IMG/VR virus record: IMGVR_UViG_3300009159_000050
Span: 25,967-89,966 of that record
DNA from: a virus
Direction: 5' to 3' (one strand)
DNA length: 64,000 bases
Shown here in pieces: positions 15,536 through 57,850 of the stretch. The notes under the pieces were generated by a model, which did no database searches, was not told the DNA's origin, and saw nothing but the letters and a program-made list of their open reading frames with translations. Both the position numbers and the translations under genes were made by a program. How positions within the stretch are numbered: position 1 is the first letter of the stretch; each line of letters opens with the position of its first letter.

Positions 15536-15609
15536 TGGAGCGAATAGCGGGAATCAAACCCGCACATTAACCTTGGCAAGGTTACGCACTATCACTATGC
15601 AATATCCGC
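15536..15609 (-). tRNA. tRNA-Gly (anticodon GCC)
   Basis: The minus strand folds to a complete cloverleaf: acceptor GCGGATA with TATTCGC (one G-T pair), D arm GCAT/GTGC, anticodon stem TAACC/GGTTA around loop TTGCCAA (anticodon GCC), and T stem GCGGG/CCCGC with loop TTTGATT. The discriminator is T, and CCA is encoded. It may help decode glycine codons in the Gly-rich structural genes. Confidence 0.95.
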
Positions 15610-15613
15610 ACTG

Positions 15614-15686
15614 CTGGTCTGGCAAGATTTGAACTTGCGACATGGGCATTAACAGTGCCCCGCTCTGCCAGCTGAGCTACAGACCA
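15614..15686 (-). tRNA. tRNA-Asn (anticodon GTT)
   Basis: The minus strand has acceptor TGGTCTG paired with CAGACCA, D stem GCTC/GAGC, anticodon stem GGGCA/TGCCC around CTGTTAA (anticodon GTT), and T stem GCAAG/CTTGC with loop TTCAAAT. CCA is not encoded (GCAG follows). Only four bases separate it from tRNA-Gly. Asn is abundant in the AT-rich tail genes. Confidence 0.95.
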
Positions 15687-43701: not shown

Positions 43702-46700
43702 CTACTCTTGAATTCTCTTAAGATTAAGAGAAGTTGATAGGCCTTGGCTAAAGTTATGAGATACTGAATGTACCAAATACCTTTGTTCAACAATACCGTT
43801 TAAAGAATAAGATAGGGTTACGGTATCTCCTACCTGAATTAAGGGGTTTCCAAATATATTTAAAGATACAGTCTTAGAAAAACCTTCAACACCTCTTTGG
43901 ACAACCTTTAACATTTTATAGGCTGCCTGCTTAGACTGTATCCACTCTGAGTCTAGCTGAACTGTCTCTGATAGATTTGAGTGGTCTATAATGCTTTCAA
44001 TAATTTCTGGATCTGAAGGTGCAACAATTTCATGCGTCCATAAATTTAAGTTAACAGTAACGTTGTTTACATCATCAGAATCTTTTTTAAGATGAATCAT
44101 GTGTGGTGATCCATTTGCTATTGCCATTCTTGCTCTAAATCCAGTGTTGATTGGTGTTGAGTATGCCAAAGAGTATTCATCTACTAGCTTTTTTTGATAT
44201 TGTCTTTTGTCTATTGCCCTGTTCCCTGGAAAATATCTCATCATATATTCAATTGGAAGAACGTCTACAGATACAGCAGCTGGTGTCTGATATTCAACAT
44301 CATAATAATTGATTCCAGATACCTCTGGTGTTGTTTGCATAAGATAAGTAGGAGACTTTGTATATAGTGGTTGTTTTTGAACTAGACCGTTTAAAAATTC
44401 TCTGTCTTGATAGAAATAGCTTACACTTCTTTCTTTTAAAGGTTTTACAGTGGCATGAATTTCTCTTAAGGTTGCTGGAGTATTAGAAGTTATTGATGGA
44501 TTACTTTTTGGAGGATATAGGTTAGTTATTTCTTGTGGGAATCTAGAAGCAAAAAATCCAAACTTTGTACCAACTGCAATATCGTTAGGTATTGTTGGTC
44601 TTTGTCGCATGCCAGTAATTTTATTTAGCTCTGATGATGCCCAACCATTTGCTGATGGGTTGGTAGTTTCATCATACTCTGTTCCAGGAATTTGCCATCC
44701 CGTTATCTCAACATTATTTATAAAAACTAGCAAAGCATTTTTTGGTGCTGCAACTGTTGCATTTTCTCCATCTTTACCATCTGTTAAGTAGTGAGCAACT
44801 CTTAAGTTAAAGCATTCATCTATATCGTAAGAAAAAGTAGTTACATCTCCTGTAACAGTTTTCTTTAATACTTTAGCAAAATTATTAATAATGCTAACAC
44901 ACTCAGCGGTAACATCTGCCCAACCTGTAACTACCCCTAAATCATTATATATAATAAGGCTGTAATCATATTTTTGTGGACTATACAAGGATGATGTATT
45001 TGGATTAACTCTACTGTATCTAGCAAGCTCTATAAAATATGATCCTGAACTATCACTGGTGCTTGCCATATTAAAAAATAAACCAGCAGCTGCGCCACCA
45101 TCAGCAGTAAATCTAAACTTAACAGAATATGTTTTATATCCAATGTCTACTTTGGATGTTGGATATACTAAAGATTTATTAGTAGATGTAGCACCTACTG
45201 CAATAGCCTTTACTTCTGGCATCTTAGGGTAATCAGTTTTAGTACTGACAATTGAGGTATTAGATGAAGAACTATATGTTTGAAGGTTTAAAGTCAAAGA
45301 TTTTTCTGATAAACCTTTGCTTGCCAGCGTTGTTACCTTTATATGATCTATTGGAACAGTTCCAAATAAACCACGCTCTACATTAGTTATTTTACCAGTA
45401 GGAGTTACCAGAACATCATAGTCTGCAGAAATATATGCTTCTCCTCCTGATACATATGTTCCTGTTGTTGTTCCTAATACTTTAAATGTTGTTGATGTTC
45501 TTTCGCTAATAATACCCTGAATATTATAAACAGCTGGAACAACGTCAGCAATCATTACTTTATCTCCGACCTTAAAGGAATTTGCTGATGTATAAGTAAT
45601 AGCAGTTCCGTTTCCAGAAACAGATGTTATTGTAGATGTTGATGGTCTAAGACCAATATCATTCTTTTTAATATAATTATCTATCTGTGAGGTAAGGTCC
45701 ACATTATTTTTAATAGATATAAACTCTTCATTGTCCCCGTTAACTTTTGACAACTTATACTCTTTATATGCAAAAGAAACAATTTCATTATCAATAAATG
45801 CAAATCCATCATTAGTCATATTAAATGTATGGAAGATGTCTAATAGATCATTATTGTTAAGTTGAAACTTATTTGAATTTACTAGCATATCTGCATCAAG
45901 ATAATTAAATCCAACAGAGTCAACAGTTTGCTGGCTCCAGACAACATCATTTGAAGTTGTGTATATAAAAGAAGGAGAGTTTGCTATAGCGTCATCTGTT
46001 ACATTTTGAAGAGATGGAGACTGTTTAATTTTTGGTGTTTGATATCTTAAAGAGATCTTACCTGGCTTGGCATTGTTTGATATACTAAATCCATTTTGCA
46101 TAATGTTTCCATCTAGCAAAGAAAGGTTAGATCCTGAAGATGAAAGTATATCGTACAAGCTTAAAAATCTCATGACTCCATACTCATCAATATATGCACC
46201 AATTTGATAAGCTACAAATAATTCATTTAAACATTCTATTATTGTTGAATCTTTAGAATTACAGTAATAGTATGAAAGATCTAGTGGTGCACTCGTGCTA
46301 TTACATACAGAATAAAGAGAGTCATAATCATAGTCTGTAAAACCAGATAGGTCTAAGATGTTTGTTATAATCTCAAATACCGATTTTCGGTTAACAACAT
46401 AGTCTGTTACTGGCTTTGATTGTAAATACCTAGAGACATCAAAACACTGAACTGTAATATTTTGAATATCATTTTCAGCCCAAGAGTCTGAATAAAAAAC
46501 TCCGCCAGGAATATAGGTGTTTGATGTTGTGCTTGAGCCTGGTGTTGAGTATGATGCAAGATTAAAATTAATATAAAACTTAATATTTTTTCTTAGCATG
46601 TTTGCCAGGATTGTAGAAGACTGATTGCTTTGGCTAGAAAAAATTGGGACTATTGTTGATCCAGCCATAGCGGGTATTCCAGATAAAGTAATCTGAGCAT

Positions 46701-48687
46701 CATTGGTGTTTAGAGAAGAGATTGGTAGTAACTCACTACTTCCATCCAAAGATTTACTAATAGATAATGATTCAACAAAGTCTGTTAAATCAATTTCAAG
46801 TCTTGGAGAAATCTCTACTACATGCATTCTTTTTAAATCAGATACTACATTTGATGAAGGTGAGGGAATTACTGTTGGTGTTGAGGTGCAATTTACTGTA
46901 TAGCTTATTGTCTGAGTAGCAGAAGTTCCTTGCTGATTTTTCCCAGAATAAACAGTAAGGGTTAGGCTATATGTTGTTCCACAAGATCCTACTCCAAGGT
47001 AGGAAGATGTGGCTGATTTTGAATCTCTTGTGTTAAAACTTCCAGAAGTTGTTGTAGTCACTTTAAAGGATGCTCCGTTAGAGTAACTAAACGAAGCCCA
47101 TACTGGTTGAGTATTATTGCCAAATGTTAGAGAGTTTCCAGTGGGGGTTGCAGGCGAAGCAGAAAATGAATTGATTGTTGGTCCTCCAGAAGTTGGCGCT
47201 GTTTCTCCTGTAAACTTTAAAAATTCTGTGTTGGTTGTTCTGTCTATCTGTGTCACCGTTATTTTGCTAAAGGATGTAGATAGGTATAAAGATCCAGAAT
47301 CACTAAACTTTGGCATTGATGACCATTTTGTTTTAGTCCAAGCAGAACCAGTCCAGTACAAAATTAATACACCATTACTTCTGCCACCTTCTGAATTATT
47401 TGGAGGGGATATATCTTGACTACCGTCAACTGTAATAGTTGCTCCATCAATAGCTATATTTACTAATGGAACTGTCATTAAAGTATTAAACTTAATAACA
47501 ATCTTATTAGTAGTAATTGCTTTTTCATAAATAGCAGTAATATTTCTTGAATCGTCATCTGAAACAAAATATTTATATGAGGATGTGTCTGTTGGTAAAA
47601 CATTCTTTAAGACTGGGATTGGTTTAGAAGAAAGAAAAAACCTTGGATTTTGCAAAATTGGTGTGACTGGAGAATAGGTAGAAACCGAATAGTTCTTAAT
47701 AACTGAAGACGTAATTTTTCTAAAGTTAGTAGGAAATGTACAGTTTACATTACCTGACTGGACATATGATTCGCCTGGTCTAAAATATGTAAATGGCATT
47801 TCTGTTGGAAATAAAGAACGGTTTTGATAATCAAAGTGGGTAGTAGCATATACTTCAGGTACCGTAAAATATACTATTGGATTATTTTTTTCACCGCTTA
47901 TGGAGTTAGCTGTGATGGTGTATACAAAGCCTGCAAAGGTGTTATCAGGGCTTTGGGAGCCTACGTAGGTAATAACCTTGGTCCAGCCTAGGGAGTCTGC
48001 CTCAACCTGCTCAGAGCCGTATTCAAGATCTGAGTTTTTTCCTGATGCATTGATCATTACTGGTATAGGACTGCTAGTTTTTACATATGTTATTACTTTA
48101 TATGCCGAGCTAGATCCGCCAGATACGGTATAAGATGTTGAACCTGTACTGACCATATCTAGCGGGGCTTCCAGAGTTGTAAAAAAAGATTGACTAGTAC
48201 TACCAATAACACTAAAAGAAGAATTGTATGCATCAATACTTACAGTATATGCTGTGCCTGATGATAGTCCAGAAAATGTATAGCTTGTCCCTGTTGGAAC
48301 TGTGTCAGATTGACCATTTAACTGAACTCTATAAAATGAAGTTCCCGTTGGTGGATTAGACCAAGACACATTAATGGTAGTTAAGTTTACAACTGAACCT
48401 GTTATAGCAAAGGCACTTGCGCTTGGTGTTGATGTAGTAACTGGTGTTGGTGTTGGACTAACTGGCGGAAACATTGCAAAGCTTTTAGTAGTAAAGTTAG
48501 GCTTAGCTCCAGAGGTTACATCAGTTGGTAAAGGGGATATTGGGACTACGGTTAGCTTTGTGCCAGTGCCAGCGGTAGTAATATATGGAGCATTAAATAA
48601 ATTATGATTCCACTCTGCAGAAACTACTGGTGTCAAAGTTATTGAGTCTGAGCCTGTAAAGACTGAAGAGCTGACATTACTTAACAT
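43702..48687 (-). CDS. Large baseplate hub/minor tail protein
   Basis: This 1661-residue protein has an Fn3-like domain at about 90-170 (NLTTINVSWSNPP, SGLSSGTAYTVSIDAY), several beta domains, and from about residue 630 a hub-like region (LEIDLTDFVESLSISKSLDG, VQCFDVSRYLQSKPVTDYV). A module shared with the 35834-36394 protein occurs at about 1016-1086 (TGTYVSGGEAYIS). It continues with a lectin-like jelly roll (VKFRFTADGGAAAGLFF) at about 1170 and ends with a FNIFGNP-like hub finish (VSLNIFGNPLIQVGDTV). It probably attaches the fibre to the tube end. Confidence 0.8.
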   Translation of the reverse strand: MLSNVSSSVFTGSDSITLTPVVSAEWNHNLFNAPYITTAGTGTKLTVVPISPLPTDVTSGAKPNFTTKSFAMFPPVSPTPTPVTTSTPSASAFAITGSVVNLTTINVSWSNPPTGTSFYRVQLNGQSDTVPTGTSYTFSGLSSGTAYTVSIDAYNSSFSVIGSTSQSFFTTLEAPLDMVSTGSTSYTVSGGSSSAYKVITYVKTSSPIPVMINASGKNSDLEYGSEQVEADSLGWTKVITYVGSQSPDNTFAGFVYTITANSISGEKNNPIVYFTVPEVYATTHFDYQNRSLFPTEMPFTYFRPGESYVQSGNVNCTFPTNFRKITSSVIKNYSVSTYSPVTPILQNPRFFLSSKPIPVLKNVLPTDTSSYKYFVSDDDSRNITAIYEKAITTNKIVIKFNTLMTVPLVNIAIDGATITVDGSQDISPPNNSEGGRSNGVLILYWTGSAWTKTKWSSMPKFSDSGSLYLSTSFSKITVTQIDRTTNTEFLKFTGETAPTSGGPTINSFSASPATPTGNSLTFGNNTQPVWASFSYSNGASFKVTTTTSGSFNTRDSKSATSSYLGVGSCGTTYSLTLTVYSGKNQQGTSATQTISYTVNCTSTPTVIPSPSSNVVSDLKRMHVVEISPRLEIDLTDFVESLSISKSLDGSSELLPISSLNTNDAQITLSGIPAMAGSTIVPIFSSQSNQSSTILANMLRKNIKFYINFNLASYSTPGSSTTSNTYIPGGVFYSDSWAENDIQNITVQCFDVSRYLQSKPVTDYVVNRKSVFEIITNILDLSGFTDYDYDSLYSVCNSTSAPLDLSYYYCNSKDSTIIECLNELFVAYQIGAYIDEYGVMRFLSLYDILSSSGSNLSLLDGNIMQNGFSISNNAKPGKISLRYQTPKIKQSPSLQNVTDDAIANSPSFIYTTSNDVVWSQQTVDSVGFNYLDADMLVNSNKFQLNNNDLLDIFHTFNMTNDGFAFIDNEIVSFAYKEYKLSKVNGDNEEFISIKNNVDLTSQIDNYIKKNDIGLRPSTSTITSVSGNGTAITYTSANSFKVGDKVMIADVVPAVYNIQGIISERTSTTFKVLGTTTGTYVSGGEAYISADYDVLVTPTGKITNVERGLFGTVPIDHIKVTTLASKGLSEKSLTLNLQTYSSSSNTSIVSTKTDYPKMPEVKAIAVGATSTNKSLVYPTSKVDIGYKTYSVKFRFTADGGAAAGLFFNMASTSDSSGSYFIELARYSRVNPNTSSLYSPQKYDYSLIIYNDLGVVTGWADVTAECVSIINNFAKVLKKTVTGDVTTFSYDIDECFNLRVAHYLTDGKDGENATVAAPKNALLVFINNVEITGWQIPGTEYDETTNPSANGWASSELNKITGMRQRPTIPNDIAVGTKFGFFASRFPQEITNLYPPKSNPSITSNTPATLREIHATVKPLKERSVSYFYQDREFLNGLVQKQPLYTKSPTYLMQTTPEVSGINYYDVEYQTPAAVSVDVLPIEYMMRYFPGNRAIDKRQYQKKLVDEYSLAYSTPINTGFRARMAIANGSPHMIHLKKDSDDVNNVTVNLNLWTHEIVAPSDPEIIESIIDHSNLSETVQLDSEWIQSKQAAYKMLKVVQRGVEGFSKTVSLNIFGNPLIQVGDTVTLSYSLNGIVEQRYLVHSVSHNFSQGLSTSLNLKRIQE

Positions 48688-49136
48688 TATACCTCCGTAA
48701 AGTCAATGCTCATACTAACGTAGTCTGACACCTTTGTTCTATTAATAATACTCTTAGAAAACTTTTCCATAAAAACAGTATATACTTCAGAAGCATTTTG
48801 TGCAGTAACAAAGTTACCTGATGAATCAAGCTCAGAGGCAACAACCTTTAAATAAATAGGAGAGCCTACATTGGACTTATAAAATGATTCAAGCCAAGCA
48901 GCACTATTATTTAAGTCAACTGTCTCAGATGTTTTTGATGGAACATACGACCAAGAAACCGATATATTCTTTTTTTGAGCAACTATATATTTTCTCATCT
49001 TACCATTAGCCATTCTAGCCTGGGTTTCAATAATCTCTGTAGAAATACTAATAGGATCTCTATTATGGTCTGTAAGTTTTTGCCAATTAGAATTATCTAG
49101 GGATAGCTGGATTCCAGCTTGTAGTAAGTACGCCAT
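48687..49136 (-). CDS. Distal tail-type minor tail protein
   Basis: This 149-residue beta-rich protein (KNISVSWSYVPSKTSETVDL, YLKVVASELDS, VSMSIDFTEV) lies between the tape measure and the hub genes, where distal tail proteins usually lie. Its short length fits a Dit-like N-terminal domain, but the assignment is positional. It overlaps both neighbours by one base. Confidence 0.65.
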   Translation of the reverse strand: MAYLLQAGIQLSLDNSNWQKLTDHNRDPISISTEIIETQARMANGKMRKYIVAQKKNISVSWSYVPSKTSETVDLNNSAAWLESFYKSNVGSPIYLKVVASELDSSGNFVTAQNASEVYTVFMEKFSKSIINRTKVSDYVSMSIDFTEV

Positions 49137-52100
49137 TATAAATTAACCTTATTAGTCTTATTATTTTTGCTTACTTCTAGCTTTAGCTTTCTCATAACTT
49201 CATTTGCTACAATTTCTGGGTTTGCGCTATTACTTGTTACAGGCATATTTATATTATACACTGTACCGCCAGAGTTTGCGCCCACTGTTGCGGTACCGTT
49301 ATTAATTGCATCCATTGTTTTAACACCATAATCTCTTACAGATGATGCTTTAACAACATATTCTCCATTTGAAACTCTAATTGATCCTCCACCAGCATAG
49401 CCAAGTGACGCTGTAATTGAATCTGATATTCCTGTTCCTGGTCCCCTGATAAGTCCACCATTGGCAAATTTAGGAATTCTAAGCTTTCCTTTATCTATAA
49501 ATCCTCCAGTTGCACCAGTAATTGCATCTCCAGCGCTACCTGGAAATGAACGATTAAATGGTGATACAAAAAGAGAGGCACTTTCGGACATAGCCCAAGG
49601 AAATCCTGCTGGATAATCTGGGGTTAACGTAAGTCTCTGCAAGTCAAAAAGATCGTCTGGAGATACATAGCTAAGGCCTCTTAGAAAATATGGATAGGTA
49701 TTGTAAGTACGGTTTGGACTGTTTCTCCAGGCAGTTAATTCGTCCTGGGTTTGGTTTCGGGGCATGACACCAGTTTGGCGAGATGCAAAGGCGGCAGCTT
49801 CAGTTTCTAAGTCTTTAATTCTTTGTAGTTCTGATAAAGCACTTGGATCTACATATCCGTCATTTCCATATGGGAAGTTCTTTGATGTACGAAATGGATT
49901 TTTAAACCATGCTACAACTTCTGGTCTAAAATTTGCATCCTGATACTCTTGCCTGCGAAGCAAATCATCCCGCTGCCAACCAATTGTGGAGTTGCGCTCA
50001 GCTGCAAACCATTCTTCCAGTGGACTCGCGCTGGAAACCATCCCGCTGGCGCGAGGGTCATCAGATTTTTTAGGCTTTTTAGGCTTTTTAGTTATTTTAG
50101 GTATTTTAGGTTTTTGAATAAGTTTTTGCACAGTTGTTTTTAAACTAGAAAGACCTGGAAGAGTAGGGTTATCTACAAGACTAGCCATACCTGGAAGATC
50201 ATAAATCTTATCATATGACATAAACCCACCAATTTTAGGAGCTGATGCTTTGCCTCCTGTGTCGCTCAGAGTATGAGAATGTCGTATTCTAGTAATTGCA
50301 GCTGCTTTATTATATAAAAAAGTTGAAAGACCCTGGTTTTGATAAGCTTTATCTGTATAGCGATAACCAATAGCTCCCGTAATTGGATCATAGGTTATAG
50401 AAGCGGCTGTTTTTCCAGTCAATGGGTCTATAACCTCTACTTGGTGGCGGGGATGTCGCCATGGGCTTAGTGACTCCCGTCCAAGGCCAGATCCTGGGTC
50501 TTTTATGGTTGAAAGAAAATCGTCTATAACTGGAGCATCTGCTTGATTCAAAGTATGTTTAGTAAACCTATAAATAAAGCTTTTATCACCCATCGTAAAA
50601 GGCTCTTCTATGACTGCTGGCAAAGCTTTATTTTCTGCAATAAGTTGTTTAGAGGTCGCACGTGGTAAATCCATTAGTGGGATAAAATTATTTAGTTTTG
50701 CTGCTAGTAGTGCCTCCCAATGTGCAAGGTCAAGTCGTGCTGCATCACCTTCTGGGAATAATAGTCTGCCTGATGATTTTATATCTTCAAACTTTTTTCT
50801 AGATACAGCGACCTTTTTCTTAAGTGCAGCGTTTGGATCAAATTTAGATTTAATGGATTGTAACATACCTGTAAGTCCAACGCCTGCCTCTGATTTGTAT
50901 GCTGCTAGTGCAGTTTTTTCAGCAGCTTTTTCAGAAGCTATTTTTGCAATCACTTCTTTACTAATTCCAATGTTGCCTATACGTGTACCAATTCTACCCC
51001 ATGGAAGAATTCCTGCAATATCAAGTGTTTGCTGCAACGCCATTTCAGGTGCAACTGATCCAAACCCTTCTTCTTGAGATCTTTTAATCCATTCTTCTTC
51101 TTGATTTCTATTTGTAGATGTCAGATAAGGAGTTCCTGGAAGGTCAAGGCCAGCAAAACGTAACATTTTCATTCCTTGGTTTACTGCTCCCATTTGTGCT
51201 AATCTGTCTACCCATGTAATACCTGGAAAAATGAAATTCTTATATGCATCGTAAGGAAGATCTACTACTCCATGGATATCTTGACCACGTAGATCTTTTC
51301 CTATTCCATAAGCCATAGGGTTAAAGATATCCTTAAAGCCTTGAAATGGTTTCTCATCTGGCTGCATTGACTTTGGTAGCGATTGCCAAGACTTAAAAAT
51401 ATTCTTTGGAGTTTCTTTCTTTGCCAACCAATCCATATTATTTTGATTTCCTTGACTTGAATAGTAGGCTGCAGATCCTGGTGCAAACTTAGTTCCAGCC
51501 ACAGAGCTTCCATGTCTATGTCCTGCTAGTCCACCTTCATGGAATCCTTTAGCTTTATCTAATCCACTATCAGTTATGTATTTTTTAAAGTTTTGCCATT
51601 GTAGAGAATTTTTGATCTCATCTGGATTTGTCCTTGCTGGTGGTTTAAATCTTTGAAGACCTTCTGCCCACCCAAGATAAACATCCTTTGTTGCTTGTGG
51701 CATATTTGGAGAGTTTTCTACAAGACCCCTTAAAAATGATGGATTAAGTCTCATAGGCATATTTAAAGCATTGTTTTCAAATTGTGCGTAACTGCTAAAA
51801 TACCCTCTTAGACCGCCATAACTTGGGCCGTATGGGTTTCCAATTTGTAATGCTAGCTTTTTATCTTTTATCTTTTTGCTACTCATAAATTTGGTATATG
51901 CTTTAAAAGTACTTTCATCAGCAAAAGCTTCAGCTGCGCCACCAAAATAAGTAATGGAGTCATAGTCTTGTAAAGTGATTGCACGGTCTTCCCAGGCTGC
52001 TAATCCCATACCCTTTTGTTTATTTTCTGCTGTTACAAAAAGTGATTCGTATTCATCTGCTAAATCTTTTTTACCGTCTTTTCTTAACTTTGCAATTGTT

Positions 52101-55100
52101 TTTCTAAAAGAGTCGTGTAAAACATCCATATCAAAATGGTGCATTGTCTCATGTATTGCAGTGTTACCCTGTACTTTATACTTTGAGTTAAACAATATGT
52201 GTGGTAGCAAATTTTCATAATTAGAAGATTTATCACCAAACCTTGGAATATATTGTCCGCCAACTCCTGCTGGCAATTCTTCCTTTTTTATTTTTGGTAG
52301 GGGTACATCTCCTAATGTATCAGATAAAAACTTTTCAACTTGGTTAGGCTTTATGGCTTTACCAGCTTGTTTGCCAACAAATAACTTAGAAATAAGTTTA
52401 CCAATACCACCAAGAATATTGCCTGCAAGACCTCCGCCAGCAAGCATAAGCGGTCCAAGTCCATATGCTCCCATGCCCATTCCACCCATAGAAGCTCCAG
52501 AGCCTGGATAGCGCATTGGATCTTTGTCTATACCCATTCCTGAACCAAAAAGTTTGTTTGGCTGCTCTTGCATTTGATGCCAGTAATCTGATATATCTTT
52601 TGTCTTTCCAGCAAAGTTAAGTCCTGGAATTTCTGTCCCGCCCCAAAGGTCTTTACCCTTTGAAGGATTGTATCTTAGCTCGCCCCATCTGCCTGTGCGT
52701 GAATTTCCTGTTGGTTTTCCATTTAAATAATTTGGTAGGTCTGGGCGCCATGGGAACAATGGAAGTTGCTGACTAGAACCAGGTTTTACTGGTCCACCCT
52801 CAGCAAGATTCATTATTTCGTAAATGTCACGCATATTTGGAACAACTAGTGAATTAGGAATATAGGTGTTTCCACCCATGTTATCTTTATAGTATCTATT
52901 TTTTATTTTTAAGCGATCCCCTAAAAATTTTCCTGGAAGAGAGCCTGCATCCTTTTTATTTTTTATAAGCCCACCTTCTGCAAACCTTCCAGCATTAAGT
53001 GCATCAAGTGCACCTACCCCATACTTCTTAACAGATTTTGCTTTAACTACATACTCGCCATTTGAAAGTAATGCGGGTATGGAATCAGAAGTACCAGTCC
53101 CAGCACCTCTAATCATTCCTCCACTAGCTTGTTTTATTACATCTTTCGCTTTTTCCTTCTTAGGAATCCTGTTAACTTCTGATCTAGCAAGAGAAGCTCC
53201 ACCTCTAATTTCTTCTGCTCTAGCCTTTAGTCTAGCAATTTCAGCATCTTTTATTCTTATCTCTGTGTCTTGATCAAATTCCATTTGTAGGTTTTGTGCT
53301 TGCTGTTCAAGAGATGCTGCTTTTATATAGTCTCCAGAGATCTTTGCCAATACCACTTCATTGGCAAGACCCTTCATCTTCATTTGAAGATCTATATGTC
53401 TTTGTGATTCATCATTAACACTCTTTTGTGCATCACGTTTTGCTTCAAGTCCCTTGATTTCTGCATCAAGAACCTTTAGGTATGCTTCTGAAGATTTGCT
53501 TAGCCCATCAACTCCATCTGTAGGATCTGTGTAATCTGTTACTTCTGGATTAAGAAATTCTTTATACTGCTTATACGAATCTGTAAAATTACTAGACTTT
53601 AAATATGCTTGAATCATTTCAAGAGGTGAGACTTTTCTCATTCCTTGTGATCTAGCCCAGTTTTTAATAGCATCTGCTGTTGTAAGCTGTAATGCAAGAT
53701 TCATCATAATAATCTTGTCAGCTGTCATTGCAGCCTCATCACCGCTTTCTTTAAAAATAGTTTTAATTTCAGCTAGTCTAGCAATTGCATCTGGATTTTT
53801 GCTTGCATTAATAGCAGCACTTAAAGCCACTACCCCAACTTCTGCAGTTACAGAAGATGATTTTAATCCATTAACTCTTTCAATAATTTGATCAAAGCTT
53901 AAGCTACCATTGCTTGTAACACTAAATAAATCAAGCATTTGATCTGCAAGAATTTTTTGAATATTTGTTAAATCACCGTATGACTTGGCTATAGCACCTG
54001 TATATTGTGTTCCTGCAAAGAAAGAATCACCAGCTTTTCTATTTGCTTCTGCAACCTTATCTAGACTTACTGTTGTTGCTGTTTGTGCATCTACTACATC
54101 TTTAGAAACACTTTTCCAAACTTCTGCAAAGTCTTTAGTTCTATTAGCTGCTGCTAAAAGGCCTTGTACATATTTTTCTGCATTTTTTGGGTCAAGCCCA
54201 CCAACTGATATAGCTGTAGTAACCTGAGATCTAATTGATCCAGTTAGGCTTCTTAAACTTAATTCGCTATCTGATATATTTTTAATAAATATTGCCAAAG
54301 GATTATCTTCTGGAAGTTTACTTATTGCATCAACTACGGCTTGAACTTCTGGAGATAGCATCCCAAGGCTGTCTTTTAAATTATTTGAGGCTAATACAAG
54401 ATTTGTAATTTTTATCTCTGTGTTTAAAGCTGTATCTCCAAGTAAGGATATAATTTCAGTGCTTGGAGTAAATGTTGCTCTTACGCTTGCTGCATGCTCA
54501 TTTTGTTTTTTAATTAATGCAGTAAGTGCTGTTGTTACTAATCCAATAGATGCTCCAGCTAGTGGGCCCCATTTTCCAAACATCATTCCTAAGCTTGCGC
54601 CTGCGAGTGCTCCTTGAGCCATACCCTTACCAGCAAAGTCTGGAAGCATTGAAAGAGCCATGTTTGCTCCAAGAATACCCATTCCTCCCCCTTTGGAGGC
54701 TAATCTTTGTATTCCTTTTGGTTTTACTTGAGGAGGATCTTTAGGATCTGGAGGAACAATTGGCAATACCGTCATTCCTGGCTGTGGTGTAGCTCCAATT
54801 GGTGCTGGTCCTTGAGCTCTTGTAGCTACTCTACGTGCTCTTCCACTTTGTTTTCTAAGTTCTTTATCTCTTGCTGCTGCATAAGCTCTTGCATCATCTC
54901 TTCCATCTTGTGCTGCAAGTCTATGTGGACTTTTTCTGTCACGACTAGCTTCGTATATGTCTCGTGTACCCTTTTTTACTCCTCTGTCATAAGCCTCTCC
55001 GTCTTTTTTGCCTCTTTCCATTACTGCTCTTGCAGTTGCAACAGACCCCGATTTTCTAGGATCACTTTCTAATGTAGAAATGTCTACAGCTCTTGGAGGA

Positions 55101-57850
55101 AATACATGACCCATTTGTAAGTCTGCAGCAGACTTTCCAGTCATTCTTTCATATAGCCTTTTTGCTCCTGGACGAATTCTTGTATAAGATCTAAGTCCAG
55201 TTAGTCTGGATTTAAAGGCTCCACGTCTTGATCTATTTGGTGCTGTGCCACCTGCTTCTCTAGAATCAGTTGGGATGGTACCATATACATCTTCATCTAA
55301 ACCAAAAGTTCTTCTTACTACAGCACGCTCTTTTGGTGCCGCTATAGAATCAACCTGCTTTTCTACTGATTTTCCAGCAGCAGCCCAAGATTTACGCATT
55401 CTTTCGTTCTCATCTTTTATATCTGCAAATGTTGTATTATATTCTGTATTTAATCTATCTACAAATTGTGATGTAATTTGTTCATATTCTCTGTATATAC
55501 CATCAAATCTTCCAGATGATATCTGTGATGATGTTGGAGCTATTCCTCTTGCCTCTCCTATTCTTAAAGCAAGAGGAGAAAGAACTGATGGAGTATTAGT
55601 AGTGCCAGCACGTCCTGCCATATTTTCTGCAGCAGGCTGTAGTCTTATGGCATGCTCTGGATAGATAGGAAGTTCAGTAGCACCTAGTTTTGGTTTTCCA
55701 ACGTCATATCCTGGAATCTTATCAGCAATCATTGCATTGATAATGCTGCCATACTTTTGGCTCATCTTAGTTGGTATTACTGTTTCTCCAGGCATTAGGA
55801 GTGCTAGTTCTGAATCTTCATTTCCTATACCGCCAACAGTTGATGGTCTTCCGCCTGCAAACTTTTTAATTGGCCCACGAGTAATTGGTGGACCTACTGG
55901 AACAAATTGTGATTGAGCAGCAATAGCTCTTTGGTATGCCCTTGTTAGCGCATTAACTGCTGATGCCTCAGAGGTGAATGTCTGTGCAAGCTTTGTGTGA
56001 ACCTGATCAAGAGATGCTGCAACGGCTGCTGCATTTCTTTGTTCAGTAGTCATGTACTTAACTTCAGATCCTAATACTGCAGTTGACTGTCCAGTTTTAT
56101 TAAATGCTGATTTTAAGAATGCAAAAAGTTTAACCATATTTGCAAGACCGTTCATGACTAAACCAGCTGTCATCAAGAGTACTGGGCCAAGACCAGCAAT
56201 CACTGCAGTTAGAGTAACTATAATCTTTTTAGTAGTTGAACTTAAGCCATCAAACTTTTCTAATATATTTGTAATAAATTTAGCAATTGGTGTGATTCCT
56301 TTTAAGAATTCTTCTCCAAGTGGAATAAGTGCTAGTTTTAAATTTTCAACAGAACTTCTAAATTTATTCATGGCAGACTCTGAGGTCATGCCTAATTCTT
56401 TTTCTGATAAGGCTGCAAGTTGTTGAACCGATGATCCAGCTAAATCAAGAACACGTGATGCTTGAGTTCCTTCTTTTGTTACGTTTGCAAACAATGTAGA
56501 AAGACGTGCAAACTGGAACTTTCCAAACATTTGCTCAATGGCTTGAGCTCTATTGAGTGGATCTAGTTGGTTAAGTGCTGTAGCAAATTCAACAACAGTT
56601 TTCTTTAGGTCTCCTTTATTATCTACAACTATTTTCTTTACATTTATTCCAAAACTTTCAAGCATAGCATTTGCTTTACCAGTTGGGTTAATCATAGATG
56701 CAAGACCAGACTTAAGTGCGTTAGCTCCTTCTGAGGCGTTAATTCCACCTTCTTTCATTGCTGTCATTAAGAATGCTAAATCTTTTACATCTCCGCCAAG
56801 TTGTTGAATAATTGGAGCTGCTTTTGGAATAGCAGTTGATATGTCATCAAGGGATAATACGGTTTGGTTTTCTACTGCGTTAAGAAAATCAATTGATTCC
56901 GCAAGATTTTCTGAAGACATTGAAAAAGCATTTTGCAAAGAAATTGTTGTTTCAAGTGCTTTTTGACTTTCTACTTGGCCAAGGATGGAAAGTCTTGTTG
57001 CTGCAGTTGTTTGTCTTGTTAGATCAACACCTTTAAAGCCTGCTGCTGCAGCTTCTGCTGCTAAACCAACTGTGGTTGAAACTGCGATACCATACTTAGT
57101 AAATTCTTTTCCAAGTTCTTGAATATCTTTTAATGCTTGTTGTGATTCTCCAGTTGGTGTAAATAAATCTCCGTAAACCTTTTTAAATCTAATTGCCTGT
57201 GTTTCCATATCCATAAAGGTTTTTGCAGCAGCTGAACCAACTGCGATAAGTGGCAAAGTAAAACCAACCATAAGCTGGCGTCCTGCCCATTGGGTATTTT
57301 TACCAAAGTTAAGAAGGTTAGTTGAACCCTGTTTTAAAAGCTGGTTGAATATTGCTTGTTTTTGAGCAGCTATCTGTGTTCTTGTTCCAAGATCAGTCAT
57401 GTCAAGAGATAGAGGTCTGACAGCAATTGCCTTCATTGCTCCGCTAGCGTCACGACCCATACGTATATACTGTGTCTGTAAATCTTTTACATTTTCTCTT
57501 GCTACCTTGTTTATCGTGTCTTGCTCAGTCTTAAATAATCTACCGAAAGTTTTTGATGCACCTCCAGCAAATCTAAAATATTCTCCTAATGAGAATTTAT
57601 TTTTTTCTAGACTACTAGTAAAAGACTCAGTAGTAGTTTTTATTGTTCTTATCTCTGCTGCAAATCTGCCAGTAGCATTTACTGAATTTATTAATGTTTG
57701 TTGAAATTGAGCAGAGACTGCATTAGCTGCAGCGCCACCCTTAGCCATTGAGGAATGAAAGGCTGATATCTGTCTCTGTAAATTTTTGATACTGGCAAGT
57801 GCCTGGGTCGTATCAATATTTACTTGAATATTAGACTGAGTATCAGCCAT
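49136..57850 (-). CDS. Tape measure protein with embedded enzyme-like domains
   Basis: This 2904-residue protein is rich in helices and hydrophobic segments, e.g. LIAVGSAAAKTFMDMETQAI and KIIVTLTAVIAGLGPVLL. It has the GPGTGxSDSI-x-GEYVVKA motif at about 1580 and 2795 (a related form at about 664), which is typical of actinophage tape measures. Embedded parts: an HETMHH metallopeptidase-like region (H1900-E1901, H1904) with EAFADE about 70 residues later; a GNAT-like segment with YQNQGLSTFLYNKA (about 2500); and a basic region with MGHVFPPRAVD (about 912). At roughly 1.5 angstrom per residue the tail would be up to about 430 nm. Confidence 0.88.
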   Translation of the reverse strand: MADTQSNIQVNIDTTQALASIKNLQRQISAFHSSMAKGGAAANAVSAQFQQTLINSVNATGRFAAEIRTIKTTTESFTSSLEKNKFSLGEYFRFAGGASKTFGRLFKTEQDTINKVARENVKDLQTQYIRMGRDASGAMKAIAVRPLSLDMTDLGTRTQIAAQKQAIFNQLLKQGSTNLLNFGKNTQWAGRQLMVGFTLPLIAVGSAAAKTFMDMETQAIRFKKVYGDLFTPTGESQQALKDIQELGKEFTKYGIAVSTTVGLAAEAAAAGFKGVDLTRQTTAATRLSILGQVESQKALETTISLQNAFSMSSENLAESIDFLNAVENQTVLSLDDISTAIPKAAPIIQQLGGDVKDLAFLMTAMKEGGINASEGANALKSGLASMINPTGKANAMLESFGINVKKIVVDNKGDLKKTVVEFATALNQLDPLNRAQAIEQMFGKFQFARLSTLFANVTKEGTQASRVLDLAGSSVQQLAALSEKELGMTSESAMNKFRSSVENLKLALIPLGEEFLKGITPIAKFITNILEKFDGLSSTTKKIIVTLTAVIAGLGPVLLMTAGLVMNGLANMVKLFAFLKSAFNKTGQSTAVLGSEVKYMTTEQRNAAAVAASLDQVHTKLAQTFTSEASAVNALTRAYQRAIAAQSQFVPVGPPITRGPIKKFAGGRPSTVGGIGNEDSELALLMPGETVIPTKMSQKYGSIINAMIADKIPGYDVGKPKLGATELPIYPEHAIRLQPAAENMAGRAGTTNTPSVLSPLALRIGEARGIAPTSSQISSGRFDGIYREYEQITSQFVDRLNTEYNTTFADIKDENERMRKSWAAAGKSVEKQVDSIAAPKERAVVRRTFGLDEDVYGTIPTDSREAGGTAPNRSRRGAFKSRLTGLRSYTRIRPGAKRLYERMTGKSAADLQMGHVFPPRAVDISTLESDPRKSGSVATARAVMERGKKDGEAYDRGVKKGTRDIYEASRDRKSPHRLAAQDGRDDARAYAAARDKELRKQSGRARRVATRAQGPAPIGATPQPGMTVLPIVPPDPKDPPQVKPKGIQRLASKGGGMGILGANMALSMLPDFAGKGMAQGALAGASLGMMFGKWGPLAGASIGLVTTALTALIKKQNEHAASVRATFTPSTEIISLLGDTALNTEIKITNLVLASNNLKDSLGMLSPEVQAVVDAISKLPEDNPLAIFIKNISDSELSLRSLTGSIRSQVTTAISVGGLDPKNAEKYVQGLLAAANRTKDFAEVWKSVSKDVVDAQTATTVSLDKVAEANRKAGDSFFAGTQYTGAIAKSYGDLTNIQKILADQMLDLFSVTSNGSLSFDQIIERVNGLKSSSVTAEVGVVALSAAINASKNPDAIARLAEIKTIFKESGDEAAMTADKIIMMNLALQLTTADAIKNWARSQGMRKVSPLEMIQAYLKSSNFTDSYKQYKEFLNPEVTDYTDPTDGVDGLSKSSEAYLKVLDAEIKGLEAKRDAQKSVNDESQRHIDLQMKMKGLANEVVLAKISGDYIKAASLEQQAQNLQMEFDQDTEIRIKDAEIARLKARAEEIRGGASLARSEVNRIPKKEKAKDVIKQASGGMIRGAGTGTSDSIPALLSNGEYVVKAKSVKKYGVGALDALNAGRFAEGGLIKNKKDAGSLPGKFLGDRLKIKNRYYKDNMGGNTYIPNSLVVPNMRDIYEIMNLAEGGPVKPGSSQQLPLFPWRPDLPNYLNGKPTGNSRTGRWGELRYNPSKGKDLWGGTEIPGLNFAGKTKDISDYWHQMQEQPNKLFGSGMGIDKDPMRYPGSGASMGGMGMGAYGLGPLMLAGGGLAGNILGGIGKLISKLFVGKQAGKAIKPNQVEKFLSDTLGDVPLPKIKKEELPAGVGGQYIPRFGDKSSNYENLLPHILFNSKYKVQGNTAIHETMHHFDMDVLHDSFRKTIAKLRKDGKKDLADEYESLFVTAENKQKGMGLAAWEDRAITLQDYDSITYFGGAAEAFADESTFKAYTKFMSSKKIKDKKLALQIGNPYGPSYGGLRGYFSSYAQFENNALNMPMRLNPSFLRGLVENSPNMPQATKDVYLGWAEGLQRFKPPARTNPDEIKNSLQWQNFKKYITDSGLDKAKGFHEGGLAGHRHGSSVAGTKFAPGSAAYYSSQGNQNNMDWLAKKETPKNIFKSWQSLPKSMQPDEKPFQGFKDIFNPMAYGIGKDLRGQDIHGVVDLPYDAYKNFIFPGITWVDRLAQMGAVNQGMKMLRFAGLDLPGTPYLTSTNRNQEEEWIKRSQEEGFGSVAPEMALQQTLDIAGILPWGRIGTRIGNIGISKEVIAKIASEKAAEKTALAAYKSEAGVGLTGMLQSIKSKFDPNAALKKKVAVSRKKFEDIKSSGRLLFPEGDAARLDLAHWEALLAAKLNNFIPLMDLPRATSKQLIAENKALPAVIEEPFTMGDKSFIYRFTKHTLNQADAPVIDDFLSTIKDPGSGLGRESLSPWRHPRHQVEVIDPLTGKTAASITYDPITGAIGYRYTDKAYQNQGLSTFLYNKAAAITRIRHSHTLSDTGGKASAPKIGGFMSYDKIYDLPGMASLVDNPTLPGLSSLKTTVQKLIQKPKIPKITKKPKKPKKSDDPRASGMVSSASPLEEWFAAERNSTIGWQRDDLLRRQEYQDANFRPEVVAWFKNPFRTSKNFPYGNDGYVDPSALSELQRIKDLETEAAAFASRQTGVMPRNQTQDELTAWRNSPNRTYNTYPYFLRGLSYVSPDDLFDLQRLTLTPDYPAGFPWAMSESASLFVSPFNRSFPGSAGDAITGATGGFIDKGKLRIPKFANGGLIRGPGTGISDSITASLGYAGGGSIRVSNGEYVVKASSVRDYGVKTMDAINNGTATVGANSGGTVYNINMPVTSNSANPEIVANEVMRKLKLEVSKNNKTNKVNL

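What the first reader, a model, noticed from the sequence alone, without database searches (positions are those of the whole stretch)
51800..52300. HExxH metallopeptidase-like domain inside the tape measure protein
Residues 1900-1905 read HETMHH, and EAFADE follows about 70 residues later, the arrangement of lethal-factor-type (ATLF-like) zinc peptidases. Tape measures of some phages carry lysozyme or peptidase domains, but this type would be new to me. It could act on the cell envelope or on a host protein during DNA entry.
Basis: partly seen in the sequence, partly recalled or inferred. Interest (0 to 1): 0.65.

Follow-up and report, generated by a model that had tools for sequence, protein, structure and literature searches.

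The report
Swappable enzyme cargo in tape measure
The huge ruler protein in this virus's tail carries a probable zinc-dependent protein-cutting unit that sits among other enzyme-like units and is swapped between related viruses, as if the tail delivers a changeable set of tools into the bacterium together with the DNA.

Summary
In the 2,904-residue tape measure protein (TMP), HETMHH is at residues 1900-1905 and EAFADE at 1974-1979. The motif belongs to a ~290-residue module found in three other IMG/VR phage lineages (60-66% identical), always inside a TMP. H1900, E1901, H1904, H1905, D1907, E1974 and E1979 are invariant. None was found in 84,980 GTDB species genomes or in INPHARED.

The label "lethal-factor type" is not supported: no Pfam, PDB or Foldseek match, and two AlphaFold runs left the catalytic half unresolved (pLDDT under 50). 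A zinc-peptidase site is likely; its family is unknown.

The larger finding is the setting. The module is one of several swapped units between a duplicated GEYVV repeat and the conserved C-terminal ~116 residues. A related TMP (L008) lacks the whole ~1,170-residue block. L010 has 89-90% identical ends but different cargo. Other units look like GNAT, kinase, ADP-ribosyltransferase or metzincin (motif level); LysM and OmpA are firm.

Best explanation: the TMP is an injected multi-enzyme effector carrier, and this module is one protease payload. This resembles polyvalent proteins and tape-measure-derived injection-system effectors, but I found no report of it in phage TMPs.

The parts
49136..57850 (-). 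tape measure protein gene, 2904 aa
   Evidence: single ORF; PhageMin_Tail E=1.3e-25; PHROG tape-measure families
55691..57850 (-). conserved TMP N-terminal part, residues 1-720
   Evidence: kept at 53-92% identity in most relatives, 34-43% in the most distant
52967..53140 (-). GEYVV repeat copy 1, residues 1571-1628, upstream border of the cargo
   Evidence: about 56% identical to the C-terminal copy; aligned
52418..52801 (-). recurrent linker-like module (DYWHQ...GMGAYGLG), residues 1684-1811
   Evidence: shared with L006, L014, L048, L050, L052, L053, L061, L064, L065, with or without the peptidase module
51512..52393 (-). candidate zinc-peptidase module, residues 1820-2113
   Evidence: homologous block in L061, L064/L065, L066
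52136..52153 (-). HETMHH motif, residues 1900-1905
   Evidence: invariant except HENMHH in L066, which keeps H, E, H, H
51914..51931 (-). EAFADE, residues 1974-1979, candidate third zinc ligand E1974
   Evidence: E1974 and E1979 invariant, D1978 is E in L061
51536..51805 (-). helical C-terminal part of the module, residues 2016-2105
   Evidence: only well-predicted part of the model, block pLDDT 66-95
49811..50701 (-). GNAT-like acetyltransferase module, residues 2384-2680
   Evidence: homologous to L066 (41%) and L064 (28%); Acetyltransf_1 E=0.063, below cut-off
49139..49486 (-). conserved TMP C-terminus with GEYVV copy 2, residues 2789-2904, downstream border of the cargo
   Evidence: 68% identical to the C-terminus of the cargo-less TMP L008, 90% to L010
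57875..58942 (-). two related ORFs upstream of the TMP, in the tail-assembly-chaperone position
   Evidence: both match phrog_10504; role from position only
43702..48687 (-). minor tail protein downstream of the TMP
   Evidence: phrog_10359 E=7.6e-38; fn3 domain

Best explanation
Residues about 1820-2113 are a zinc-dependent peptidase-like payload carried in an exchangeable C-terminal cargo block of the tape measure protein. Shown: the module is inside the TMP reading frame, keeps its putative zinc/catalytic residues in four lineages, is under purifying selection, and moves between TMPs independently of their N-terminal part. It sits between a duplicated GEYVV repeat and the conserved C-terminus, next to a GNAT-like module. 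Inferred: the TMP leaves the tail at infection tip-proximal end first, the cargo refolds in the host, and the peptidase cuts a host protein (favoured) or the cargo chain itself to free the other enzymes. The TMP would thus be both ruler and injected multi-enzyme effector.
For: Invariant H1900, E1901, H1904, H1905, H1912, D1907, E1974, E1979, while 42% of all columns are invariant and the other two His (1884, 2104) vary. dN/dS 0.27-0.53. Module and trunk identities disagree: window vs L061 module 66% / N-terminal part 41%; window vs L066 module 60% / N-terminal part 82%; L002, trunk 76%, has no module. Cargo-less TMP: L008 aligns to residues 1-1621 and 2789-2904 only; L010 has 89% and 90% identical ends with other cargo. 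Cargo of relatives includes an APH/kinase-type HxDxHxGN...DF motif (APH E=0.0043), a GNAT-like module, an ART-like motif set, a metzincin-like HExxHxxG...NxM pair, LysM E=7.9e-10 and OmpA E=1e-15. ATP-, acetyl-CoA- or NAD-using enzymes make sense only in cytoplasm (established knowledge). Literature: TMP C-terminus lies at the tail tip (PMC5099701); an enzyme fused to a TMP is known in P23-45 (PMC10770324); tape-measure-derived CIS effectors with active C-terminal enzymes exist in Streptomyces (PMC11126660, PMC13277306).
Against: No recognised peptidase family matches; the catalytic half was not modelled. Only four independent lineages. The enzyme names of most neighbours rest on motifs or sub-threshold hits. 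No protein, virion or activity data; ejection and refolding are inferred. Folded 30-kDa domains would hardly fit a tail tube, so unfolding, tip storage or cleavage must be assumed.
Confidence: 0.5

Rival explanations
1. Self-processing: the module is a peptidase that cuts the TMP/cargo chain, during assembly or after entry, to separate the enzyme units, as proposed for MPTase domains of polyvalent proteins.
For: Iyer et al. (PMC5512222) argue this for zincin-like domains of injected multidomain proteins; in P1 DdrB it probably cleaves before packaging. The window cargo has several units in one chain.
Against: 9 of 15 cargo-bearing representative TMPs have no HExxH at all, so processing by such a domain is not general. 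The glycine/histidine linkers also occur in TMPs without a peptidase (L017, L050).
Confidence: 0.25
2. Envelope role: the module acts on the cell wall or a surface/membrane protein at the entry site, like peptidoglycan-hydrolase motifs known in TMPs.
For: TMP muralytic motifs are known in mycobacteriophages (Piuri and Hatfull 2006, cited in PMC13277306). Some relatives carry LysM or OmpA peptidoglycan-binding modules, and L066 has OmpA and this module in one TMP. No other muralytic domain was recognised in seven tail-region proteins scanned.
Against: Peptidoglycan metallopeptidases of tails are of other folds (M23/LAS, established knowledge); no Pfam muralytic hit here. The neighbouring GNAT-like module would need cytoplasmic acetyl-CoA.
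Confidence: 0.13
3. The HExxH is a metal site of a non-peptidase enzyme, or a degenerate/structural module; the resemblance to a peptidase is misleading.
For: No family or fold match. HExxH also occurs outside peptidases (alphaKG-HExxH enzymes, cited in PMC12633501).
Against: Full conservation of H/E/H/H/D and the two glutamates; the weak M13 profile match lands on the motif.
Confidence: 0.12

Closest known systems
Polyvalent proteins with zincin-like MPTase domains (Iyer et al. 2017, PMC5512222), e.g. N4 virion RNA polymerase
   Same: One virion-borne polypeptide joining several unrelated enzyme-like domains, including HExxH and GNAT/ART types, thought to be injected; domains exchanged between phages.
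   Different: The chassis there is mostly head-packaged or conjugative; here it is the tape measure protein. The module matches no MPTase model.
Tape-measure-derived effectors of contractile injection systems: Tme (PMC11126660) and Sle1 (PMC13277306)
   Same: Tape-measure-like N-terminal part with exchangeable C-terminal active domain, in Actinobacteria.
   Different: Those are host-encoded CIS effectors with a terminal active domain; here a phage structural TMP carries several internal units followed by a conserved TMP C-terminus.
Thermus phage P23-45 gp96, TMP fused to an RNA polymerase (PMC10770324)
   Same: An enzyme for use inside the host is built into the TMP of a siphovirus; a metallopeptidase domain is also reported in it.
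   Different: RNA polymerase is N-terminal; no shuffled cargo block reported in the passages read.
TMP peptidoglycan-hydrolase motifs of mycobacteriophages (Piuri and Hatfull 2006)
   Same: Enzymatic motif inside an actinophage TMP.
   Different: Muralytic; no muralytic family was matched by this TMP.
ATLF-like / M34 and M13 peptidases
   Same: HExxH with a downstream conserved glutamate; M13 profile weakly matches the motif (E=0.13).
   Different: No significant family match; fold untested.

Membership tests
ATLF-like (lethal-factor type, M34) peptidases | HExxH zinc motif | tested here: met
   HETMHH/HENMHH invariant at H, E, H in four lineages
ATLF-like (lethal-factor type, M34) peptidases | Third ligand Glu downstream | tested here: inconclusive
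   E1974 and E1979 invariant, but so are E1935 and E1942; the ligand cannot be chosen without a structure
ATLF-like (lethal-factor type, M34) peptidases | Match to the family profile | tested here: not met
   no ATLF hit in Pfam scans of the TMP, the module or its relatives (matches weaker than about 0.1 may be filtered out)
Zincin superfamily | Zincin fold | tested here: inconclusive
   AlphaFold pLDDT 47 and 49, catalytic half below 50; Foldseek no hit at E<=0.001
Gluzincins (e.g. M13) | HExxH plus ExxxD | tested here: inconclusive
   EAFAD fits ExxxD in three lineages, EAFAE in L061; Peptidase_M13 E=0.13, 12.3 bits against cut-off 24.5
Polyvalent proteins | Several disparate enzyme domains in one polypeptide | tested here: inconclusive
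   window: HExxH and GNAT-like modules, both below family thresholds; relatives add kinase-, ART-, LysM- and OmpA-type modules
Polyvalent proteins | MPTase-PolyVal profile match | tested here: not met
   no such Pfam hit
Polyvalent proteins | Delivery into the host with the DNA | not testable with these tools
   inferred from TMP biology only (PMC5099701, PMC10770324)
Tape measure proteins | TMP family profile and tail-operon position | tested here: met
   PhageMin_Tail E=1.3e-25; neighbouring tail genes
CIS effectors Tme/Sle1 | Located in a contractile injection system cluster | not tested
   no sheath search was run; head and tail phage genes flank the TMP
M23/LAS or NlpC/P60 muralytic TMP domains | Family profile match | tested here: not met
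   no such Pfam hit in the TMP

The most novel reading that the evidence does not exclude
In a lineage of uncultured siphoviruses the tape measure protein is an exchangeable multi-enzyme injection cartridge: cargo blocks of about 500-2200 residues carrying proteases, acetyltransferases, kinases and ADP-ribosyltransferases are swapped at GEYVV repeats, and this module founds a new zinc-peptidase family used as one payload.
Probability: 0.42. Interest if true: 0.82.

Novelty: new variant of a known kind. Interest (0 to 1): 0.62.

Why it matters
Injected phage effectors were known mainly from head-packaged proteins, and tape-measure-based delivery of enzymes mainly from contractile injection systems. 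If phage tape measures carry swappable enzyme arrays, the largest and least understood phage gene becomes a catalogue of early host-takeover enzymes, and it gives a phage-side source for tape-measure-like CIS effectors. The claim is testable: each module has defined borders and a natural cargo-less comparison.

Tried and rejected
AlphaFold of the module, twice (4 and 5 sequences): pLDDT 47 and 49; only the helical residues 2016-2105 were confident; Foldseek against PDB and BFVD gave nothing. Deeper alignment: repeated viral scans and two genome scans with the module gave no further lineage. L001/L003/L054/L060/L067/L077 are one record, 99.95% identical to the window over 12.6 kb, and were not counted as independent. 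INPHARED tblastn of the peptidase and of GNAT-, kinase-, ART- and metzincin-like modules: no convincing match. Module vs metzincin-like pair by hhalign: probability 14%, alignment ends on the HExxH; too weak to claim homology. PDB phmmer hit 8pjw (SAKe6FE, E=4e-5 summed from three weak repeats, none significant alone) rejected as chance. Chimeric assembly as the source of the mosaic was considered: the L064-type TMP recurs in four records with different IMG sample numbers, which speaks against it.

Full report
Observation. The window lies in a virus record of 89,966 bases. ORF 49136-57850 (-) encodes a 2904-residue protein that is a tape measure protein by Pfam and PHROG and sits in a normal tail operon. 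HETMHH is at 1900-1905 and EAFADE at 1974-1979, as reported. It is the only HExxH in the protein and unlikely by chance (0.9% of shuffles).

Relatives of the module. Scans of IMG/VR with the module found only four lineages: the window (L001, L003, L054, L060, L067 and L077 are one record of the same population, 99.95% identical over 12.6 kb), L061 (66%), L064/L065 (62%) and L066 (60%). None was found in GTDB species genomes or convincingly in INPHARED. In every case where the reading frame is held complete, the module is inside a TMP of 2900-3980 residues. Across them H1900, E1901, H1904, H1905, H1912, D1907, E1974 and E1979 are invariant; L066 has HENMHH, so a variable position of the motif changes while the ligands stay. 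dN/dS is 0.27-0.53: a functional, fast-evolving module.

Which family. Pfam, PHROG, NCBIfam and PDB profile searches gave no significant match. The only peptidase signal is Peptidase_M13 at E=0.13-0.2, aligned over the HExxH. Two structure predictions left the catalytic half unresolved. The lethal-factor label therefore rests on motif spacing alone and is not adopted. A zinc-peptidase-like site is likely; fold and family are open.

Context: a cargo block. A search with the whole TMP gave 52 related loci. The N-terminal ~720 residues are conserved, but the region after a GEYVV motif differs greatly. The window has two GEYVV repeats, at 1571-1628 and within 2789-2904; copy 2 with the last ~76 residues is the C-terminus shared with cargo-less TMPs such as L008, L015 and L016. 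L008 aligns to window residues 1-1621 and 2789-2904 and lacks everything between. L010 has 89% identical residues 1-729 and a 90% identical C-terminus but different cargo without this module; L002 (trunk 76%) has other cargo again. Module and trunk identities are incongruent: window-L061 66% vs 41%, window-L066 60% vs 82%. The cargo is exchanged separately from the rest of the TMP.

What else is in the cargo. The window cargo has a GNAT-like module (2384-2680; Acetyltransf_1 E=0.063, below cut-off). Relatives carry an APH/kinase-type motif (L002, L052, L066), an ART-like R...SxT...DEY pattern (L006, L017, L050, L052, L061), a metzincin-like HExxHxxG...NxM pair (L014, L061), LysM (L006, L052) and OmpA (L066). 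Only LysM and OmpA pass curated cut-offs; the others are motif-level suggestions.

Mechanism. TMP C-termini lie at the tail tip (PMC5099701), so a block just upstream of the conserved C-terminus is placed to leave early. Enzymes on a TMP chassis are known: the P23-45 RNA polymerase (PMC10770324) and tape-measure-like CIS effectors Tme and Sle1 with active, variable C-termini. Polyvalent proteins provide the precedent of multi-enzyme injected chains with zincin-like domains (PMC5512222). I therefore favour a TMP-borne injected payload that cuts a host protein. Self-processing of the chain is the main rival; it is weakened because 9 of 15 cargo-bearing TMPs have no HExxH. An envelope role is possible, given LysM/OmpA in relatives, but fits poorly with a GNAT-like neighbour.

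Novelty. In the open-access literature searched I found no description of exchangeable multi-enzyme cargo in phage tape measure proteins. Subscription papers and bioRxiv were not covered. The concept of a tape-measure-like effector is known, so I rate this a new variant of a known kind.

Limits. The sample is small and chosen by similarity to this TMP. Delivery, refolding and catalysis are inferred. Host is not established; the TMP's nearest annotated relatives are mostly phages of Gordonia, Streptomyces and Mycobacterium.

Noticed in passing
window 52418-52801 (residues 1684-1811): A ~130-residue module of unknown fold (DYWHQ...GSGASMGGMGMGAYGLG) recurs in about nine other cargo-bearing TMPs, with or without the peptidase.
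   Followed up: partly
residues 2107-2120 of the TMP; L014, L017, L050, L061, L064: Glycine/histidine linkers of the type GGPVGHKH separate cargo modules.
   Followed up: partly
L061 residues 2155-2385; L014 residues 2640-2880: Two distantly related (27%) metzincin-like modules, HEILHSLGIGD and HEIIHSFQGH with a following NPFN(V/I)M, in other TMPs.
   Followed up: partly
L006, L017, L050, L052, L061 cargo: ADP-ribosyltransferase-like motif set shared by five TMPs in different cargo positions; motif-level only.
   Followed up: partly
L066 residues 1907-2000; L052 and L006 cargo: OmpA-like and LysM peptidoglycan-binding modules inside tape measure proteins.
   Followed up: partly
window TMP residues ~700-1010 (after GETVIP at 688): A second variable stretch of the TMP lies after another GE-T/Y-V motif; L064, L050 and L021 carry modules upstream of the main cargo site that are C-terminal cargo in other TMPs.
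   Followed up: partly
L046 6135-9995 and 9999-13196: A related TMP is split into two ORFs; real or sequencing error not checked.
   Followed up: no
window 15536-15686: Two tRNA genes, Gly(gcc) and Asn(gtt).
   Followed up: no
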